Part shown: positions 17,061 to 45,765 of the stretch, one piece after another | How the letters are laid out: each line of letters begins with the position of its first letter | How positions within the stretch are numbered: position 1 is the stretch's first letter | DNA from: an uncultured Clostridia bacterium | GTDB lineage: Bacteria; Bacillota; Clostridia; Oscillospirales; Acutalibacteraceae | Direction: 5' to 3' | Assembly: GCA_944376265.1 (NCBI GenBank) | Contig: CALWCD010000008.1 | Location: 1 to 46,417 of the forward strand | DNA: 46,417 nucleotides | Translations under genes and position numbers: made by a program | Notes under the pieces: generated by a model | The model's input: the letters and a program-made list of their open reading frames with translations, nothing else | Database searches by the model: none | What the model was told of the DNA's origin: nothing

Positions 17061-17214
17061 TGTGTACAACCTCATTTCTAAAACTTAGATTTGAGGGACG
17101 GCGCCTCTTTTTCAGGCGCTCTGGCGCAAACGCTCTGAAAAAGGGGCAGGAAGCTGAGGCCGGAACGCATCCAGCCTTTCCTGTACCATGCGCCAAGAAC
17201 CCGTGGCTTTGGTA

Positions 17215-17430
17215 CGGCCTATCCGGGCAAGTCTTCCGGCTCAGGCATACAAACGGGGCGCTTCACCTTCCCGGCCCAAAGGGCCAGTGGCAGCAAAGAA
17301 GCCGGGAAATCATGTCCCAGCTTCCGGAAGCGTCCCTCTGCCATCACGGCGACGGGTTCGCCGGGGATTCTCACCCCGTTCCTGTGTTCGGCCGCGGAGT
17401 CGTTCCGCGGACACCCGGAGTCCCAACGGG
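17215..17430 (-). ncRNA. Cobalamin riboswitch
   Basis: On the minus strand the leader carries the family's conserved elements in order: GGTGAGAATCC (17375-17365), GCCACTGGCCC near 17290, and the B12 box GAGCCGGAAGACTTGCCC (about 17242-17225). The total length of about 215 nt fits the class. The leader then continues about 150 nt to the lipoprotein gene, including an imperfect TTTTTCAG/CTGAAAAA hairpin near 17112-17146 that may be part of the expression platform. Corrinoid binding should turn the uptake genes off. Confidence 0.9.
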
Positions 17431-17434
17431 GCCT

Positions 17435-38771: not shown

Positions 38772-39002
38772 TTATTTTCCCTCTGTGCTTTCCACTTGTT
38801 CCATTGTCAACTCCCTGCCATCGTATGTATCGAGAAAATCCAGTATAGCTTTCCTTGTTACCTTTCGACAGCCAAATTTGATAGAGCGCAGATATCCACA
38901 ACGAATCAATTGATACACCGTGTTCTTGTTGACTTTTAAAAGCTCTGCCACTTCGGATATCGTGTAAAGCACTTGGGCAGAGGAATCTAACTTCGAATTC
39001 AT
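38772..39002 (-). CDS. Excisionase-like helix-turn-helix protein
   Basis: A 76-residue protein with a MerR/excisionase-type fold: VLYTISEVAELLKVNKNTVYQLIRCGYLRSIKFG, then CRKVTRKAILDFLDTYDG. Such proteins bind attachment sites and steer recombination toward excision. The start is ATG 39002, behind GGAGGAG. In complete elements an integrase gene usually follows directly; here only about 160 bp separate this gene from the rubrerythrin junction, so the integrase is missing or moved. A plain regulatory role is possible. Confidence 0.7.
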   Translation of the reverse strand: MNSKLDSSAQVLYTISEVAELLKVNKNTVYQLIRCGYLRSIKFGCRKVTRKAILDFLDTYDGRELTMEQVESTEGK

Positions 39003-39508
39003 TATATCATCTCCTCCAAGATATATCAACTATCACTTTCTAGCCCAACGCCTGCGGCTAACAGGCCATGGAGTGGTTGTCTCCCCCGCATTCTGATGCC
39101 GGGCCGCCCGATGCTGTGAAGCGTCCAGGGCGGAAGTATCATGATACCAGCCGGATCGCCGCGTCCCGCAGGCGCCGCCTGCGATTTGATCACTCTTCTC
39201 AGAGCGCCGCTCCCCAGCCGGGAACGTATTGGGCTTGGTATGCACTTGTCAAGGTCCTGTGAAGTGGGATGCCTTCATCTTATAAGAACGTATCCAACCG
39301 GCGATTTCTATCACTTGTGCCATTCTTTTTTGGAAAAGGCAGAAAATAACTTGTGGAATCGATTTTGCGCTAGTTCCTTCTTGGAAAATAGGAAGCGCCA
39401 GAGAGCCGAACTCCCTGGCGCTTCCCGTTTCCGGTCTGCCCCCCTTATACCGAGGGGTTACGACATATTGCTTCCACTCCCTTCCCTATTTCCCACAAGT
39501 TGGATGAT
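39003..39508. other. Stretch without a supported gene
   Basis: The part 39060-39245 is strikingly GC-rich between AT-rich flanks. It has a GTG-started minus-strand frame of 70 codons (39245 to 39033) that resembles no family I know. A hairpin AAGCGCCAG/CTGGCGCTT lies at about 39391-39423. One TTTCCCAC repeat lies at 39489. I do not call a gene here. Confidence 0.4.
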
Positions 39509-39661
39509 TCATTTCATCAGCTTTCCAAATTGAGGGATGGCCTTCACCAGGTGGAGCATAATCTCCTGGCGGATGTCCCCCTTTGGCCCGTGGGCGCGGT
39601 ACTCCAGCCAGCGGTCGTTGGACAGGCCGGCACAGTCGCAGAGAATGTTGGGCTTCGCCAT
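39509..39661 (-). pseudogene. Truncated YqaJ-like recombinase N-terminus joined to an unrelated tail
   Basis: A 50-codon frame begins MAKPNILCDCAGLSNDRWL and continues to EYRAHGPKGDI, which I recognise from the start of YqaJ-type phage/element exonucleases, where G-G-S-D-x-A-A-I normally follows. Here the text switches to RQEIMLHLVKAIPQFGKLMK and stops. An internal deletion joining the first and last parts of one or two genes explains this. It overlaps the upstream short frame by one base (TGATG). Confidence 0.5.
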
Positions 39662-39714
39662 CAGGAGACGCCCCCTTTCGGCAAGACCAGAAACGTGTGA
39701 AGATCGATTTTCAT
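39661..39714 (-). CDS. 17-codon frame behind the repeated leader
   Basis: ATG 39714 sits behind GGAAAGGAG and encodes MKIDLHTFLVLPKGGVS, ending in a TGA that overlaps the next ATG. It could be a leader peptide or the remnant of a longer gene. The good ribosome site and the overlap argue that it is translated. Confidence 0.45.
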   Translation of the reverse strand: MKIDLHTFLVLPKGGVS

Positions 39715-39921
39715 GTTGACTCCTTTCCGCGGGTCCCCCCGCAACAGAAAAAGCCGGCCTCCCGAAGGAAACCGGCTTGTGCCTTGGATGCTGGCAGGAA
39801 ACAAAAAAGTGCCATCCGCCAAAAAGGCAAATGACACTTTGCAAACAAGAAACTATGTTCAGCTCCCGCCAAACTCCGATACTGACAAGAGTATTATACC
39901 AGAGGGGTGGGGCGGAGTCAA
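39715..39921 (-). promoter_or_regulatory. Element promoter and leader A with terminator hairpin
   Basis: On the minus strand TTGACT (39921-39916) and TATAAT (39898-39893) are 17 nt apart. The leader contains the block TCTTGTTTGCAAAGTGTCA, immediately overlapping a 14-bp hairpin (39839-39826 with 39820-39807, some G-T pairs) followed by TTTTTTGTTTCC. A second hairpin with a short T-run follows at 39778-39745, then GGAAAGGAG and an ATG. The same promoter-block-terminator-ribosome-site arrangement recurs at 42392-42580. Confidence 0.7.
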
Positions 39922-39986
39922 GAAATCCTGGGAGACACGTGCAAACATCAAGGTAAAAAGGCTGCCCTCCCAGGCTGTCTCTGTCG

Positions 39987-40298
39987 TTATAAATATTTCT
40001 CGTACTCTTGGAAACCATAGAAGAACCGGTGGATCAGCACGGCTTTCTCCTGTTCGTCGATCTCATAGATCATGACGTAGTGTTTGATTACGGCCCGGCG
40101 AAAGCCCTGAGAGGCAAGCCAGGGGTTGCGGCAAAGTTCGTAGAGCGCAGGCATCTCTGAGAGCCGGACATAACAGGCATCCACCGCGTCTGCAAAGTCT
40201 GCCGCCGCCAAAGGAGCGTGGAGTTCCTCCACCATGTAGCGGAGGATGGCGTCCAAATCCTGCTCCGAGTATGGGGTGGTGATGACCTTATATGCCAT
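39987..40298 (-). CDS. ParE/RelE-family toxin
   Basis: A 103-residue protein with the family's basic beta-sheet fold: YKVITTPYSEQDLDAILRYM at the start, a central ALYELCRNPWLASQGFRRAVIKHYVMIYEID, and VLIHRFFYGFQEYEKYL at the end. It overlaps the antitoxin gene by 11 bp, the usual type II order with the antitoxin first. ParE toxins poison gyrase and RelE toxins cleave mRNA; sequence alone does not decide, though the C-terminal pattern leans to ParE. Such pairs often stabilise mobile elements. Confidence 0.85.
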   Translation of the reverse strand: MAYKVITTPYSEQDLDAILRYMVEELHAPLAAADFADAVDACYVRLSEMPALYELCRNPWLASQGFRRAVIKHYVMIYEIDEQEKAVLIHRFFYGFQEYEKYL

Positions 40299-40548
40299 GC
40301 TTCTCCCTCAGCTTGCGCAGGGACTCCCTGGCGTCAACCACGTTCCCGGCCCGGAATTCCTCGGCGGACTGGGCCAGCTTGGCCTCCACGTCCAGCAGCA
40401 TCATTTTTTCCTCATAGGCTTCCAGGCTCATGACCACCATATCCCCATAACCGTTTTTGGTGATGAAGATAGGCTCCTTGGACTCCTTGCACATCTGGGA
40501 GATGTGGGTGGTGTTTTTCAAATCCCGAATGGGAATGATCCGTGGCAT
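40288..40548 (-). CDS. Phd/YefM-family antitoxin
   Basis: An 86-residue protein with the Phd/YefM N-terminal DNA-binding block (IPIRDLKNTTHISQMCKESKEPIFITKNGYGDMVVMSLEAYE, here in parts) and a charged C-terminal tail that should bind the toxin. ATG 40548 lies behind AAAGGAG. Its promoter overlaps a dyad (CTGTGG...CCACAG), fitting autoregulation by the toxin-antitoxin complex. Confidence 0.88.
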   Translation of the reverse strand: MPRIIPIRDLKNTTHISQMCKESKEPIFITKNGYGDMVVMSLEAYEEKMMLLDVEAKLAQSAEEFRAGNVVDARESLRKLREKHGI

Positions 40549-40574
40549 GGACAATGCTCCTTTCTGTGTCATTA

Positions 40575-40613
40575 CTGTGGGATTATTATACCACAGCCTT
40601 CCAAGGAATGCAA
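40575..40613 (-). promoter_or_regulatory. Toxin-antitoxin promoter and operator dyad
   Basis: On the minus strand TTGCAT (40613-40608) and TATAAT (40590-40585) are 17 nt apart. CTGTGG (40575-40580) and CCACAG (40591-40596) flank the -10 symmetrically with a 10-nt gap, a likely operator. Confidence 0.7.
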
Positions 40614-40779
40614 TCCGAAAATCCGAAAAAAGGATTCGACCTACACTCCCTATCCCAAGACCTCTTTCGAACCATCCACTGAAAAAGGACTTTCGTAAAG
40701 CAAAAAGGAGGAGCGGCACAGCGCCGCTCCCCCCCATTTCCAGATACTATGCAACACGGGTTCATTGTGCGTAATCTGG

Positions 40780-41235
40780 TTAATTGTGGTAATTGAATAA
40801 AGCCATTGCCCAGTTTTCGGGCTCGTTTTTCACGATCTGAATCGTCTCAGGGTAGACGCGGGCGGTGTGCTCAGCCAGGTTATAAAATCTGGAATCAAAC
40901 TGATACTCGCCGAACAGGAAGTTCGCCAGGTTCCGCAAATAAAGCAGAGCCATTTCCTGGGACGACCCTGACCAGTATGGCCCCTGCATCGAAAATACCT
41001 CTGCGGCAATCTTTTCTATGTCCGTCCCCAGCGATTCCTTTACTTTCGATACATGGTGCTCTACAGGCAGTGGCCCAGCTCGTGGGCGAAAAGCCCGCAC
41101 ACCATCTGGTACCGCTCCTCTCTGGTGGAGAATTGGGTGATGATAGGGTTCCCGGCGTTGATGTGGATGGTCAGGTTATTGGTACAGGCTGCCTGGGGTG
41201 CGTCGGGCTCCCAGGTCAAGTGGACCCGCACCGGA
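40780..41235 (-). pseudogene. Remnant of a HExxH metallopeptidase/VWA-like element gene
   Basis: One frame reads TNNLTIHINAGNPIITQFST and on to VCGLFAHELGHCL, with a zinc-type HELGH motif, then stops at about 41061. The continuation, VEHHVSKVKESLGTDIEKIAAEVFSM to the end at 40780, is in a different frame. I recall this text type from VWA/CobT-like metallopeptidase proteins that accompany MoxR-type ATPases in mobile elements. The N-terminal and much of the C-terminal part are missing and at least one frameshift is present. Confidence 0.6.
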
Positions 41236-42391
41236 CGACGGGAACCGTACCGTTTTGTCTGGGCGGCTCGATGTCCTTTACCAGGCTCATCCGATCCACC
41301 ACGCTTTGGTTTAAGGCCCGGCAGCCCTCGTAGCTCACATTGGTGGTGACCACCAAGACAGCGTCCGGGTGGCGGCGGATCCCTCCCCGGTGGGCAGGGT
41401 AATGGTTCCCTCCTGCTCCAGCAGGGAGTTGAGTCCCACCAGCACACCGGGCTGCAGGATGGTGGAAGGCTCCTGGATTTCCGCAACATATCCGTTCTTC
41501 AATGCCTTGATAAAGTCCGTCTCCACATAGGAGTAGGTTTGACCCGAAGTTTCTGCAGGTGCGGCGCTGAGCTGCCGCACCTTCTCGGTGACCTTTTCCA
41601 GCACCAGGGCCATGCAGTCCTGGGCGGTGGCGGCTTGGTTCTCCACCCCGGTAAGGGATTGGTACACCCCTGCCGGGTCGTAGTCCATGTCCTCCAGGTC
41701 GGGAAGGTGTAACAGCTTGCTGACGTTTTCATAAGTCATTCCCCCCAGGGAGCGCAGCTGTTCCCGTTCCCGGTCCAGCTGGGCGTCCCCGGTGGCGTGC
41801 TCCGTATCGGGGAACACCATGCCCACGAAATCGTAAATCTCCGTTCCAGCGGAGCAGGTGTACTTCATGTAAGGCAGTCCCAGCCCCGCAGCGATGGCCT
41901 TGGCCCCCATGGTCTTACCTGTGCCAGCGGGGCCGCGAAGGAGGAAATTCCGCATCTGGGCTGGCTTGCCCGTGGTGAGCTTAGCGTGCTTGCAGATGTC
42001 CACCACCTCCGGTGGAATGACGTACCACTCGGGAAGGGCAGGCACCAAGGCCTGTTCCCCGGCGGACAGCTTCCTGCCTGGAGTCAGGGGGTATTTCCCC
42101 ACAAAATCCTTGTGCTCGATGACTTGGACGGGCCGGTGGACACGATTCCCGGAGGTGTTGGAAAAGACGGTAAACTCCCCGGCAAGGACCGTGCCGGGCT
42201 TGTAGAGCCCGGAGTCCAGCTGGGCGCGGGAGACACGCATCAGGTTCCCCGACTTATCCACCCGGACTTTCACGTGGACCGGGCAGCTCTCGTCTTTTAC
42301 CCGCCGGTAGGCATTATCGCAGAGGATCGCCGCGGCGGTTACCGCCTTTGGCAGATCCGGAAAGCCGTCCTTTCGCTGCTCCCGATAACAT
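41236..42391 (-). pseudogene. Frameshifted MoxR-type AAA ATPase
   Basis: A long frame contains an AAA core: Walker [22 protein letters not shown], then YDFVGMVFPDT, and it breaks at ITLPTGE near 41390. The remaining AAA text (RRHPDAVLVVTTNVSYEGCRALNQSVVDRMSLVKDIE, here summarised) is found in the next frame over down to about 41270. The 5' end is also out of register: the ATG at 42391 behind GGAAAGGAG is not in frame with the AAA text. Intact relatives work with a VWA/metallopeptidase partner, whose remnant follows. At least two frame disruptions make this non-functional. Confidence 0.65.
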
Positions 42392-42580
42392 GATGTGCTC
42401 CTTTCCGCAGGCGGGGCCTGCATGAGATGTTTATTTCCACCCTTTCGGGAGAGAAACCGGAAACAAAAAAGTGCCAAAGAGCACAAACTCCTTGACACTT
42501 TGCAAACAAGACACTGTGAACGGCACGCCGTCCGCGATACTTTACGGGTTTATTATAGCATCCGGAAAGGGCCGTGTCAA
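42392..42580 (-). promoter_or_regulatory. Element promoter and leader B with terminator hairpin
   Basis: On the minus strand TTGACA (42580-42575) and TATAAT (42557-42552) are 17 nt apart. The leader contains the same block as leader A (TCTTGTTTGCAAAGTGTCA), then a 13-bp hairpin (42500-42488 with 42481-42469) followed by TTTTTTGTTTCC, and later GGAAAGGAG and an ATG at 42391. Loop and inner stem differ from leader A, while stem base, block and tail are kept. Confidence 0.75.
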
Positions 42581-42840: not shown

Positions 42841-44301
42841 ATGCTCGACCAAGAATTTCAACAACTTGTTACCCGTGTTCAGAAACGACAGTATGAGGAG
42901 CAAATCATTGAAGTTAAAGCCGCTCATACGGGTTGTCCAGACCGTCTCTATGATACTTTCTCCTCCTTTAGCAATCAAGACGATGGCGGGACAATCCTTT
43001 TCGGCCTGGACGAAAAACAGCATTTTGCCCCCGTAGGTGTGTACGATGCGCAAGATCTTCAAAAGAAACTTATGGAGATTGGTGAGGCGATGACGCCTAT
43101 TGTTCGCCCAGTCCTTTCGGTGTTTGATGAAAATGGAAAGCTATTTGTGACTGCTGAAATCCCTCCTGTTGATTTGACAGAACGTCCTTGCTATAAAACT
43201 GCAAAAGGCCGTTTGAAAGGATCTTATCTCCGTGTGGGAGATGCGGATAAGCCCATGACCGAATATGAGGTCTACAGCTATGAGGCTTATCGAAAGAAGT
43301 ACCGGGATGATATACGGCCTGTGGAAGAAGCAACCTTAGCTTCGCTCAACCAGGATGATCTGGATGACTATATAGCCAGAAGAAAGAGAAACCGTCCACA
43401 CTTCTCCGCCGTTCCAACAGACCAGCTAAACGAATTGATGAATATAACGAAAAACGGAGAGGTAACCCTCTCCGCCGTCCTGCTCTTTTGTCCTTACCCA
43501 CAGTCTTTTTTCCCTCAACTGGCCATTATCGCCTCCAGGGTCCCTGGGACAGAAATGGGCGCTGTGGGAACGGATGGTCAGCGGTTTACAGATAGCAAGC
43601 GTATCGAGGGAAATCTGATGGAAATGCTGGAAGCTGCCGTTGCATTCGTCAACAGCAATATGCGAACTGCTGTCCAGATCAACCCCAAAACCGGAAAACG
43701 GACAGACGCTCCCGAATATCCCATGGATGCTGTCCGCGAGGTGATCTTAAACGCCCTGGTACACCGGGACTATAGCCGGTACACGGAATCCATGCCCATT
43801 CAGCTTACTATGTTCGCCGACCGTCTAGTCGTGAGAAATCCTGGTGGATTGTACGGCCGTATAACCTTGGATCAACTCGGAAAAATGCAACCTGACACCA
43901 GAAATCCGTTTCTGGTAACAGCTATGGAAACGCTTCATCAAACAGAGAACCGGTATTCTGGAATTCCCCGAATCCGTCAGGCAATGACGGAAGCCGGCCA
44001 GCCAGAACCCCAATTTGAAAATATACGGGGCGAGTTTTCCGTTACTCTCTATAACAGAAAAGTCAGTGCCGCCTCTAGGGATCAGCATCCAATAGACCAG
44101 AGCGGTAAAGACCTCATCGCATTCTGCTCCATTCCGCGAACCAGGAAGGAGTTGACTGAGTTTCTAGGGCTTGCCTCCGGGCAATACGCCATAAAGCGTT
44201 ATGTGGACCCACTGGTGAAATCTGGTGACCTTCGCCTTACTATCCCGGATAGGCCGCGAAGCAGAAATCAAAAATATATCGCTGCAAAGTCCGACGATTA
44301 A
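42841..44301 (+). CDS. AlbA_2/Schlafen-domain putative ATP-binding transcriptional regulator
   Basis: A 486-residue protein. The N-terminal AlbA_2 (Schlafen-like) domain includes EEQIIEVKAAH, a DTFSSFSNQDDGGTILFGLDE block and YLRVGDADKPMTEYEV. The middle has a GHKL-type ATPase text, with DAVREVILNALVHRDYSRY (N-box) and RLVVRNPGGLYG. The C-terminus is a winged-helix-like part. Family members are common in mobile elements and defence neighbourhoods, but functions vary and are mostly unproven. Base composition is clearly lower in GC than the core genes. The start ATG has AAAGGAGG 8 nt upstream. It is the only plus-strand gene in the element portion. Confidence 0.82.
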   Translation: MLDQEFQQLVTRVQKRQYEEQIIEVKAAHTGCPDRLYDTFSSFSNQDDGGTILFGLDEKQHFAPVGVYDAQDLQKKLMEIGEAMTPIVRPVLSVFDENGKLFVTAEIPPVDLTERPCYKTAKGRLKGSYLRVGDADKPMTEYEVYSYEAYRKKYRDDIRPVEEATLASLNQDDLDDYIARRKRNRPHFSAVPTDQLNELMNITKNGEVTLSAVLLFCPYPQSFFPQLAIIASRVPGTEMGAVGTDGQRFTDSKRIEGNLMEMLEAAVAFVNSNMRTAVQINPKTGKRTDAPEYPMDAVREVILNALVHRDYSRYTESMPIQLTMFADRLVVRNPGGLYGRITLDQLGKMQPDTRNPFLVTAMETLHQTENRYSGIPRIRQAMTEAGQPEPQFENIRGEFSVTLYNRKVSAASRDQHPIDQSGKDLIAFCSIPRTRKELTEFLGLASGQYAIKRYVDPLVKSGDLRLTIPDRPRSRNQKYIAAKSDD

Positions 44302-44347: not shown

Positions 44348-44806
44348 TTATCCCAATCTAACTTGCTCCCCCGCCAAATACCCGCCCAGTACCAGGACGC
44401 CGTCTTGCTCGTAGACTGGGGTGTTGTCCGCCACATAGAGGCGAAGTCTATCCCCTTCCGCTAAGCCCCAGCGCCGGCCCCGGAGGTAGACTTTCACCAA
44501 CCGGCCGTCACGGGCTATGATGACAGCCTTTGGGCGGCTGCGGAATAGGGTCTTCTCCACTTTTTGGACGGTGCCCTCCAACACCACAAATCTCCCCTGT
44601 GCGATACGCCGGACCAGGAGAACACCCAGGCCGGCGCAGACAGCGCCGCACAGCAGAAATGGCAAGCAAAGCGCATGGTCACGGTAGACCAGCGCCGTCA
44701 CGATTAGCAAAACAAAACAGGCCCCCGCTCCGGCAAACCGGAGGAGGGCCTGTTTTCGCAAGAGTGGAGGGAGTTCGCGGATCAACGGCCACAGCCGATT
44801 CCTCAC
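44348..44806 (-). CDS. Small membrane protein of the element, function unknown
   Basis: A 152-residue protein from GTG 44806, overlapping the stop of the upstream gene (GTGA). It has two adjacent membrane spans (about residues 25-65), then a soluble C-terminal domain rich in beta strands (RFVVLEGTVQKVEKT, AVIIARDGRLVKVYLRGRRWGLAEGDRLRLYVADN) that resembles an OB or NfeD-like fold. I do not recognise the family. It is coupled to the upstream gene and probably works with it. Confidence 0.6.
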   Translation of the reverse strand: MRNRLWPLIRELPPLLRKQALLRFAGAGACFVLLIVTALVYRDHALCLPFLLCGAVCAGLGVLLVRRIAQGRFVVLEGTVQKVEKTLFRSRPKAVIIARDGRLVKVYLRGRRWGLAEGDRLRLYVADNTPVYEQDGVLVLGGYLAGEQVRLG

Positions 44807-45369
44807 AGCACCAACACCCTCCTTTTCTTCAGCAGCCCCAGCACCGCTTTTACCATACGATCCCGGCAGAAAGCGTGCTCCATCTGGGCCTCCAGAATAT
44901 GATCCTGGATGTTCTCCTGGGTGTAGATGGCCTCCGTCAGAGCCTGGCTGTTTTCCTCCCCCAGGAGCTCCGGCACAGGTTTTACCCCGTGTTCCTCCAG
45001 GAAGACCAGCTCCGCCATGGTGAGACGCAGCCCTGCTTCCTGCAGCCATTGGAGTGTCTGGGCTTCCTGCTTGTTCAGAGGGAGCCGCAGCTTGCCAGAT
45101 TTTGCGGGGATAAGGACGCACTGAGTCAAGGCCCGGTACTCCCCGGCGGAACTGTCTTCCGTCACTTCTGCCAGGCCCATCCGCTGGAGATGCCGCAGCT
45201 CCTTCCGATGCCAGTGGTTATTCTCCTCTGCCTTGGCAAAGCCGAACCGGCCGTTGAACCACAGCCCCGCCTGGATCCCCGTCAGCTGGAAGGTGTGGCC
45301 GCCCCGCTGGATCTTCAGGATATGCTCGGTGGAGCCCTGTTCCACCAGGCCTTTTGCGATGTATTTCAT
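44803..45369 (-). CDS. Hypothetical protein of the element
   Basis: A 188-residue soluble protein starting at ATG 45369 behind AGAGGAGG. The first third (HILKIQRGGHTFQLTGIQAGLWFNGRFGFA) looks like a small beta domain; the rest is helical and charged, with a possible winged-helix segment (RHLQRMGLAEVTED). I recall similar proteins from mobile elements of gut Clostridia but know no function. Its stop overlaps the next gene's start. Confidence 0.6.
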   Translation of the reverse strand: MKYIAKGLVEQGSTEHILKIQRGGHTFQLTGIQAGLWFNGRFGFAKAEENNHWHRKELRHLQRMGLAEVTEDSSAGEYRALTQCVLIPAKSGKLRLPLNKQEAQTLQWLQEAGLRLTMAELVFLEEHGVKPVPELLGEENSQALTEAIYTQENIQDHILEAQMEHAFCRDRMVKAVLGLLKKRRVLVL

Positions 45370-45435
45370 CTTTCCTACCTCCTCTGATTTGACGTCTATT
45401 CCTATTACACGGCGGAGATCCGAATTTTACAACAC

Positions 45436-45765
45436 TCACAGTAGAAAAAGAGCCGCCACACATCCGCCAATTACCAGGGCCACCCCCAGGCAGACCAATG
45501 CCACTTTCCCCATGAGGTGGGTGTCCATCCCCTCCCGCTCCCGGTCGGTGTCTATGGGTTCCACATCGTCATAATAGCCGTCGTAGTTGGGATCTACTTC
45601 GGGAGCGGCCTGGGATTTCTGGCTTCGCTTCCGGCGCTTCTCTTGGGTGGGAGCAGCCGGCTCTTGGACATTGGTCTGGTACGCAGGCAGGGCTTCCCCA
45701 CACTCCGGGCAAAAAGAAAGGGCGCCGGGCAGAAGCTCAGCACCGCAAAACGGGCAGTATTTCAT
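45436..45765 (-). CDS. Zinc-ribbon membrane protein
   Basis: A 109-residue protein. The N-terminal zinc ribbon has C-x2-C at YCPFCG and C-x2-C at FCPECG. A disordered basic and acidic linker follows, then one C-terminal membrane span (KVALVCLGVALVIGGCVAALFLL, in part) that anchors it with the ribbon in the cytoplasm. The start ATG lies behind AAAGGAGG. Proteins of this layout are common and mostly of unknown function. Confidence 0.75.
   Translation of the reverse strand: MKYCPFCGAELLPGALSFCPECGEALPAYQTNVQEPAAPTQEKRRKRSQKSQAAPEVDPNYDGYYDDVEPIDTDREREGMDTHLMGKVALVCLGVALVIGGCVAALFLL

What the first reader, a model, noticed from the sequence alone, without database searches (positions are those of the whole stretch)
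39715..42580. A repeated cis-regulatory leader (promoter, conserved block, terminator, ribosome site) in the integrated element
Two leaders 2.6 kb apart on the minus strand share: a strong promoter with 17-nt spacing; AGTATCG near the transcript start; the block TCTTGTTTGCAAAGTGTCA; a hairpin whose outer stem (AAGTG/CACTT) is kept while inner stem and loop change with compensating bases; the tail TTTTTTGTTTCC; then GCGGAAAGGAG before an ATG. The second stem arm starts inside the conserved block, so a factor or alternative pairing at that block could prevent termination. A shared attenuator that switches several element genes together fits this, and I do not know it as a named RNA family.
Basis: partly seen in the sequence, partly recalled or inferred. 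Interest (0 to 1): 0.75.

Follow-up and report, generated by a model that had tools for sequence, protein, structure and literature searches.

The report
Shared terminator leader of mobile-element operons
Two near-identical gene control regions turn out to belong to a repeated, apparently unnamed family of RNA leaders that put a promoter, a small hairpin and a stop signal in front of several operons of one kind of mobile DNA element in Clostridia, probably as a conditional brake.

Summary
Both leaders exist as described.

A covariance model found the same leader beyond this window: 86 matches in 27 genomes chosen because they carry it, and in 12 of 29 genomes of the host's genus. Sixty-nine distinct copies show strong compensatory change in P1 and the terminator (287 double-changed cells against 99.9 +/- 8.0 shuffled). 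In 66 of 69 the best sigma-70-like promoter ends 8-11 nt before AGT. Copies precede three recurrent operons of one integrative element, led by an SSB-like gene, a conserved gene followed by a YqaJ exonuclease, and ligase/unknown genes. A second terminator was detected in 40 of 65 copies, in none of 15 of the SSB class. No Rfam family matches.

In this window the element is a decayed remnant and the genes behind both leaders are broken.

Best reading: a conditional terminator (attenuator) shared by an element's operons. Antitermination itself and any factor are inferred: no competing helix is supported and no protein was identified. A fixed brake or insulator remains possible.

The parts
42552..42580 (-). 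Leader 1 promoter, TTGACA-17-TATAAT
   Evidence: 12 of 12 consensus matches
42518..42541 (-). Leader 1 start motif AGTATC and hairpin P1 (arms 42533-42528 and 42523-42518)
   Evidence: P1 covaries in 69 distinct homologues
42493..42511 (-). Leader 1 copy of the 19-nt block (linker plus 5' arm of the terminator)
42468..42501 (-). Leader 1 intrinsic terminator T1
42398..42408 (-). Leader 1 ribosome site GCGGAAAGGAG, before ATG at 42391-42389
41335..42391 (-). Broken gene behind leader 1: short ATG ORF, then a 5'-truncated and frameshifted AAA ATPase; homologues in four related elements have 622-626 aa, and the SSB-like gene that follows this leader there was not found here
39893..39921 (-). Leader 2 promoter, TTGACT-17-TATAAT
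   Evidence: 11 of 12
39857..39883 (-). Leader 2 start motif AGTATC and hairpin P1 (39874-39857)
39832..39850 (-). Leader 2 copy of the 19-nt block
39806..39840 (-). Leader 2 intrinsic terminator T1
39751..39778 (-). Leader 2 second terminator-like hairpin T2
39720..39730 (-). Leader 2 ribosome site GCGGAAAGGAG, before ATG at 39714-39712
39509..39714 (-). Broken genes behind leader 2: short ORF, then a 50-aa remnant whose start resembles, by eye, the YqaJ-type exonuclease of related elements
   Evidence: YqaJ domain in the intact relative
44348..45765 (-). Three-gene cluster (zinc-ribbon-like by eye, 188-aa and membrane-like proteins) that lies directly upstream of leader B in G1004, G189, G508 and G078; function unknown

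Best explanation
The two leaders are members of a structured-RNA family of about 85 nt that serves as a shared conditional terminator for several operons of one type of integrative element in Clostridia. RNA polymerase starts at a sigma-70-like promoter so that AGUAUC lies at or next to the 5' end of the RNA. Hairpin P1 and a conserved single-stranded linker are made next, and then the intrinsic terminator T1, in many copies followed by a second one, T2. By default most transcripts stop there. When the element is to be expressed, an element or host factor, or the P1/linker RNA itself acting on RNA polymerase, lets transcription through, so that operons for DNA maintenance (SSB, AAA/VWA, YqaJ exonuclease, RecD2 helicase, ligase) come on together. 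Shown by sequence: architecture, covariation, repeated placement before the same operons, terminator-like T1 and T2, and, in the SSB class, no promoter-like site above 8 of 12 between T1 and the gene. Inferred: that T1 works in the cell, that read-through is regulated, and what does it. In this window the system is a relic. (The factor-free form, listed below at 0.17, is contained in the confidence given here.)
For: Strong covariation in P1 and T1: 93.9% of cells paired, 287 double-changed cells against 99.9 +/- 8.0 in shuffles, slid versions at most 92. The top 8 mutual-information pairs, and 11 of the top 14, are model pairs; the other 3 lie inside T1. Unpaired parts: 69 of 69 begin AGT, 67 of 69 AGT[AT]TC, 67 of 69 NAGT after P1. 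In 66 of 69 the best promoter ends 8-11 nt before AGT, spacing 17 nt (18 in one). T1 energy mean -20.6 kcal/mol, range -14.1 to -30.8; 57 of 69 have at least 6 U in the 8 nt after the stem. T2 detected in 26 of 32 class A/other, 14 of 18 class C, 0 of 15 class B; the best promoter-like score between T1 and ATG in class B is 0 in 13 of 15 and 8 of 12 in 2. Same operon positions in related elements. Test not selected by leader: of 4 IMG/VR loci fetched by the class C protein, 3 carry the leader upstream (71.2, 66.1, 40.9 bits) and the fourth has only 95 nt upstream; the 66.1-bit one appears to be the G189 copy that is in the model.
Against: No competing antiterminator helix is supported. No factor was found: in 5 genomes searched, the 5 NusG-domain matches lie on contigs other than the leader-bearing ones, and a model of the 188-aa neighbour protein has no significant PDB match. 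Internal terminators are not denser in the elements than in control DNA (13 of 262 against 3 of 63 gene pairs), so processive antitermination gains no support there. Linker similarity within an element is raised, but so is that of P1, so co-evolution with a cognate factor is not separated from shared descent. Some A/other and C copies have a promoter-like site of 8-10 of 12 between T1 and the gene, often near the shuffled level. Some T2 candidates are weak (-8.7 and -9.9 kcal/mol). No expression data were available.
Confidence: 0.58

Rival explanations
1. Fixed brake or insulator: a strong promoter followed by strong terminators gives constant low expression and blocks read-in from the chromosome; nothing switches it.
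For: T1 and most T2 look like ordinary strong intrinsic terminators; no alternative helix and no factor found; internal terminators not in excess.
Against: A fixed brake would not need a near-invariant 5' motif, a covarying hairpin and a conserved linker ahead of the terminator, nor the same module before several operons.
Confidence: 0.22
2. Stand-alone small RNA: promoter, P1, linker and T1 make an RNA of about 85 nt that acts in trans; its place before operons is secondary.
For: It has the parts of an sRNA gene, and in some A/other and C copies a weak promoter-like site follows T1.
Against: In the SSB class the T1-to-ATG stretch is 56-200 nt and holds no promoter-like site above 8 of 12, so the gene seems to need read-through; several near-equivalent copies before different operons fit a cis role better.
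Confidence: 0.09
3. Factor-free RNA antiterminator (a special form of the best explanation, contained in its confidence): P1 and the linker bind the transcribing RNA polymerase, as put or canT do, and T1/T2 only stop polymerases that did not start at this promoter.
For: A short 5' RNA directly before tandem terminators; conserved unpaired sequence around P1; precedents in phage HK022 and Tn916 (PMC9378689 abstract; PMC11658703 sections 16 and 20).
Against: The base of T1 is itself conserved as part of the motif (AGYGTC/GGCRCT), which a general antiterminator would not need; no excess of internal terminators.
Confidence: 0.17
4. Riboswitch- or DNA-level control: P1/linker is a small-molecule aptamer, or the stretch from +1 to +50 is an operator or single-strand promoter.
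For: AGTATC at a nearly fixed distance from the -10 box would also suit a DNA-binding protein.
Against: P1 keeps pairing while its sequence changes, and its loop is not conserved, which points to RNA structure, not to a DNA site or a typical aptamer; no antiterminator helix.
Confidence: 0.06

Closest known systems
canT antiterminator and terminators T1-T3 of Tn916 (PMC11658703; abstract, outline and sections 16 and 20 read)
   Same: Promoter, then cis element, then terminator in an integrative element of Gram-positive bacteria, coupling gene expression to the state of the element. One present element carries an integrase with the Tn916-type DNA-binding domain and a sigma-like/HTH_16 gene pair; the likeness of that pair to Tn916 orf7/orf8 is recalled.
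   Different: canT activity lies in 341-452 nt with a complex predicted fold; this motif is about 85 nt with one small hairpin, repeated in an element, with the terminator built in. Sequences were not compared.
conAn antitermination system of pLS20 (PMC8955417; abstract, outline and passages read)
   Same: RNA element at the head of a long mobile-element operon that contains terminators.
   Different: conAn pairs a protein (ConAn1) with an RNA (conAn2) at the conjugation operon; no ConAn1 search was made here and no excess of internal terminators was found.
EGeRS1/EGeRS2 establishment-gene regulatory sequences of pLS20-family plasmids (PMC8708921; abstract, outline, results part 1 of 3 and section 4.1 read)
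   Same: A conserved sequence repeated directly upstream of several operons of one element defines a regulon.
   Different: EGeRS1 is 420-750 bp, GC-rich and showed no constitutive sigma-A promoter; EGeRS2 is a repressed promoter. Here a sigma-70-like promoter is fixed to a short hairpin-linker-terminator unit.
put RNA of phage HK022 (PMC9378689; outline and abstract read)
   Same: Nascent cis RNA that acts on pausing and termination of early transcripts.
   Different: As recalled, put has two hairpins that are not terminators; here the second hairpin is itself terminator-like.
Riboswitch, T-box, leader-peptide and LicT/ANTAR-type attenuators (recalled)
   Same: Promoter, RNA element, intrinsic terminator, gene.
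   Different: No Rfam match, no conserved leader ORF, no competing helix supported, no conserved P1 loop.

Membership tests
Any Rfam 15 family | Match at or above the family's gathering score | tested here: not met
   Window: only a cobalamin riboswitch elsewhere. Seven related loci, 140 kb: only pemK RNA elsewhere. Permissive searches gave only sub-threshold hits.
Intrinsic transcription terminator (T1) | Stable stem-loop followed directly by a U run, sequence variable but pairing kept | tested here: met
Riboswitch/T-box-like two-state attenuator | Competing antiterminator helix supported by covariation | tested here: not met
   (non-model pairs among the top 14 lie inside T1). Invariant stretches cannot covary, so pairing between them is not excluded.
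Leader-peptide attenuator | Conserved short ORF with ribosome site before the terminator | tested here: not met
   17 of 69 cores have any start codon behind a loose SD-like string; the 10 printed show no shared place
LoaP/NusG-paralogue antitermination | NusG-domain paralogue in the element | tested here: not met
   5 NusG matches in 4 of 5 genomes searched, none on the leader-bearing contigs; a factor elsewhere in the genome is not excluded
EGeRS1 | Conserved repeated region of 420-750 bp without sigma-A promoter | tested here: not met
   66 of 69 leaders have a sigma-70-like promoter at the usual place; motif about 85 nt
EGeRS-like regulon | Same regulatory sequence directly upstream of several operons of one element | tested here: met
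canT / conAn processive antitermination | Read-through of several, also foreign, terminators | not testable with these tools
   Needs reporter assays; the indirect test by internal-terminator excess was negative
conAn | ConAn1 protein encoded at the head of the operon | not tested
   No ConAn1 sequence was at hand

The most novel reading that the evidence does not exclude
A new and very compact processive antitermination system of Gram-positive mobile elements: a roughly 45-nt 5' RNA module (AGUAUC, P1, linker), reused at three or more operons, that either recruits an unknown element-encoded protein or acts alone on RNA polymerase to carry it through the tandem terminators T1 and T2, so that DNA-maintenance genes are expressed together only when the element is active.
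Probability: 0.3. Interest if true: 0.8.

Novelty: new variant of a known kind. Interest (0 to 1): 0.6.

Why it matters
It gives a computational handle (a covariance model whose convincing copies mostly score above 45 bits) on a regulon of an integrative element carried by Clostridia, including Lachnospiraceae and Oscillospiraceae by their record titles. If the leader is a conditional terminator, it would join canT, conAn and EGeRS as evidence that termination control, not only promoter repression, keeps mobile elements silent in Gram-positive hosts. Its small size would make the mechanism easy to dissect.

Tried and rejected
Alternative pairing of the AGUAUC-like stretches with the 3' arm of T1: possible in leader 1, but these stretches do not change when the T1 base changes from U-A to C-G. 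Pairing of T1 with a T2 arm: only looked at by eye on printed sequences; no sign of covariation, not counted. C. difficile sRNA SQ1002 (E 2.3) did not recur: chance. Internal terminators as a sign of processive antitermination: striking by eye (sense against antisense 12:1, 12:2, 15:2, 13:2, 6:3, 12:2 in six elements, T1 and T2 included; several only 20-44 nt before the next ORF), but the control gave no excess (only 63 control gene pairs, so weak). Linker similarity between leaders of different class: same-element pairs 0.578 against 0.480, P1 0.390 against 0.317, inner T1 0.289 against 0.260 (permutation p 0.001, 0.001, 0.14; 43 and 852 pairs): not diagnostic. NusG paralogue: none on leader-bearing contigs. 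Fold of the 188-aa neighbour protein: mean pLDDT 71.3 from 4 sequences, best PDB E-value 0.37: no information. Early exact-pattern searches were too strict: own genome only (1 of 295), none; one search found no relative of the AAA protein in viral contigs. Model R1 gave 14 of 250 genomes at E <= 0.01; by eye leaders were real in 5 genomes including the window's and plain terminators in 9. In the viral-contig scan (23 loci) L244, L246 and L264, all of one contig, repeat G189 copies, and L261 (46 bits) was not examined. R2 on loci L006-L012 gave no match, but L006 and L007 stop short of the known leaders, so absence there means nothing. Two low-scoring rows (37.0 and 36.1 bits, both in G1012) are kept in all statistics on 69 copies; dropping them was not tried. 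Class labels rest on regular expressions on the first ORF; 4 of 69 had no ORF found, and in L100 and L224 the ORF called (2 and 28 nt after T1) is probably wrong.
Full report
WHAT IS IN THE WINDOW. Two leaders on the minus strand share a promoter with 17-nt spacing, AGTATCG near the predicted start, the block TCTTGTTTGCAAAGTGTCA, a terminator hairpin whose base is kept while its top changes, the tail TTTTTTGTTTCC and GCGGAAAGGAG before an ATG. The block occurs twice in the window with 0.00 expected. Folding gives strong terminator hairpins. Between AGTATCG and the block lies a further hairpin, P1, different in sequence but equal in place in the two leaders. Leader 2 has a second terminator-like hairpin at 39778-39751. 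Rfam gives nothing at threshold for the region and only sub-threshold hits in permissive searches.

THE GENES BEHIND THEM ARE BROKEN HERE. After leader 1 a short ATG ORF runs into an AAA ATPase that lacks its N-terminal part and is frameshifted; homologues in G078, G189, G508 and G1004 have 622-626 aa. After leader 2 there is a short ORF and a 50-aa piece whose start resembles, by eye, the YqaJ-type exonuclease of related elements (domain in the intact relative). A ParE/Phd-like toxin-antitoxin pair lies between the leaders and an AlbA/HATPase gene beside them. A third leader in the same genome (G000:C37:3717-3813) heads what looks like a shrunken operon. So the window holds a relic; the relatives tell what the leader belongs to.

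A FAMILY, NOT JUST A DUPLICATION. A model from the two leaders (R1) found convincing copies in other genomes of the host's family (read). A model from 14 copies (R2) separates most convincing copies (above 45 bits) from other terminators (the highest of these that I read, 38.0 bits); a few copies fall between or below, such as L266 at 40.9 bits before the class C gene. R2 gave 86 matches at E <= 0.001 in 27 genomes, 3 of them under 40 bits; all 27 were chosen because they carry the motif, so this is not a frequency. Frequency comes (12 of 29 genomes of the genus, the window's included; 40 matches at E <= 1e-5; 398 genomes across the phylum: four reached E <= 0.001, only the window's own genome above 45 bits; this search used stricter filters, which lose weak matches). 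Of 116 loci from a capped pattern scan of genome contigs, 28 hold a match above 45 bits. Named carriers include Acutalibacter sp. 1XD8-36, [Clostridium] clostridioforme AGR2157, several Lachnospiraceae isolates and Bacterium 1xD42-67; in the last, one contig holds 10 of that genome's 11 matches, two of them under 38 bits. That G189 is Acutalibacter sp. 1XD8-36 is inferred from equal contig length and leader position.

COVARIATION. On 82 aligned copies (69 distinct, A6) the P1 + T1 structure is formed in 93.9% of cells, with 13 pairs changed on both sides, 287 double-changed cells against 99.9 +/- 8.0 in shuffles (0 of 500 reach it), and at most 92 in versions slid by 1-3 columns. The alignment was fitted to the structure and leans towards it. 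On the MAFFT alignment of 14 copies, not fitted (though the structure was drawn from it), the result holds: 43 against 18.3 +/- 3.0, slid at most 21. The top 8 mutual-information pairs and 11 of the top 14 are model pairs; the other three lie inside T1, and no further helix appears. Unpaired parts: AGT in 69 of 69, AGT[AT]TC in 67, NAGT after P1 in 67. L131 lacks the AGTATC stretch by what looks like a small deletion.

PROMOTER AND TERMINATORS. In 66 of 69 the best promoter ends 8-11 nt before AGT with spacing 17 (18 in one). Of the other three, L131 is the copy with the deletion, L100 shows a promoter at the usual place by eye, and L214:420 was not looked at. The RNA therefore probably starts at or just before AGUAUC (inference). 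T1 energies average -20.6 kcal/mol, and 57 of 69 have 6 or more U in the 8 nt after the stem. A second terminator T2 was detected in 26 of 32 A/other, 14 of 18 C and 0 of 15 B leaders (65 of 69 with a first ORF); the detector misses some that are visible by eye, such as L087, and some it takes are weak. In class B no promoter-like site scores more than 8 of 12 between T1 and the gene; in A/other and C some reach 8-10, often close to shuffled values. So at least the class B genes appear to depend on read-through of T1.

THE ELEMENT. Gene lists of G1004, G508 and G189, with orthologue matches in G1018, G1019 and G1006, give this order: recombinase and class B sortase (where present), leader A (three A-type leaders in G189) with ligase and unknown genes, a three-gene cluster, leader B with an SSB-like gene, AAA ATPase and CobT-like VWA protein, leader C with a 380-aa unknown protein, YqaJ exonuclease, RecD2 helicase, a protein with a weak zinc-ribbon match and an actin-like protein, then (where present) an HTH gene, a sigma-like/HTH_16 gene pair and an integrase or serine recombinases; domain calls are, partly on one element only, and the recombinase label of the last genes of G189, G508 and G310 is by eye. 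Leader 1 of the window corresponds to the class B leader and leader 2 to the class C leader. In loci fetched by the class C protein alone, 3 of 4 show the leader upstream and the fourth has too little upstream DNA to tell; one of the three appears to be a copy already in the model.

MECHANISM. The sequences put a promoter-proximal terminator in front of class B genes, and tandem terminators in front of many others. Why P1 and the linker are kept is not explained by a passive brake, which is why I favour conditional antitermination (0.58, of which 0.17 is the factor-free form). Against: no competing helix, no factor, no excess of internal terminators over a small control (13 of 262 against 3 of 63 gene pairs), and within-element similarity that is not confined to the linker. 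A structure model of the conserved 188-aa neighbour gave nothing.

NOVELTY. No Rfam family. Eight full-text searches of the open PMC library showed, in the titles and first lines listed, no description of it; comparators found were canT of Tn916, conAn and EGeRS of pLS20, and put. Subscription papers and supplementary tables were not searched, and a survey of thousands of gut candidate RNAs (PMC8040213, passages read) may contain it unnamed. I rate it a new variant of a known kind: a terminator leader shared by operons of a mobile element, with a new motif and layout.

Noticed in passing
window 17209-17431, minus strand: Cobalamin riboswitch (RF00174, 76.1 bits).
   Followed up: no
window 39987-40548, minus strand: ParE-like toxin and Phd/YefM-like antitoxin pair between the two leaders, in the decayed element.
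   Followed up: no
window 42841-44301, plus strand: Schlafen AlbA_2 / HATPase_c_4 protein on the opposite strand between the conserved three-gene cluster and leader 1; no match among the 11 other compared stretches, but a protein of similar look lies near the leader on G078:C43, which was not in that comparison.
   Followed up: partly
window 38772-39029, minus strand: Excisionase-like HTH_17 protein; an 11 of 12 promoter-like site overlaps its start.
   Followed up: no
L206 7973-8036 (G1004:C18): pemK RNA (RF02913, 74.8 bits) between the sigma-like gene pair and the integrase of a related element.
   Followed up: no
G1012:C22 (L216-L219): One 62-kb contig with 10 leader matches on both strands (two under 38 bits), suggesting that the regulon expands in some elements.
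   Followed up: partly
L205 1411-3061 and window 45765-44348: Three-gene cluster (zinc-ribbon-like, about 187-aa, membrane-like protein) found in 11 of 12 compared stretches including the window, directly upstream of leader B where checked; a candidate place for a regulator.
   Followed up: partly
class B leaders, e.g. L045 4790-4866: Instead of T2, SSB-class leaders carry, by eye, a hairpin of the type GGTTTCCGCCTG...CAGGTTGAAATAAA and a small GCAGG/CCTGC stem just before the ribosome site, seen in several elements.
   Followed up: no
L261 8877-8960, minus strand (IMG/VR contig): A 46-bit match to the leader model in a contig not otherwise examined.
   Followed up: no
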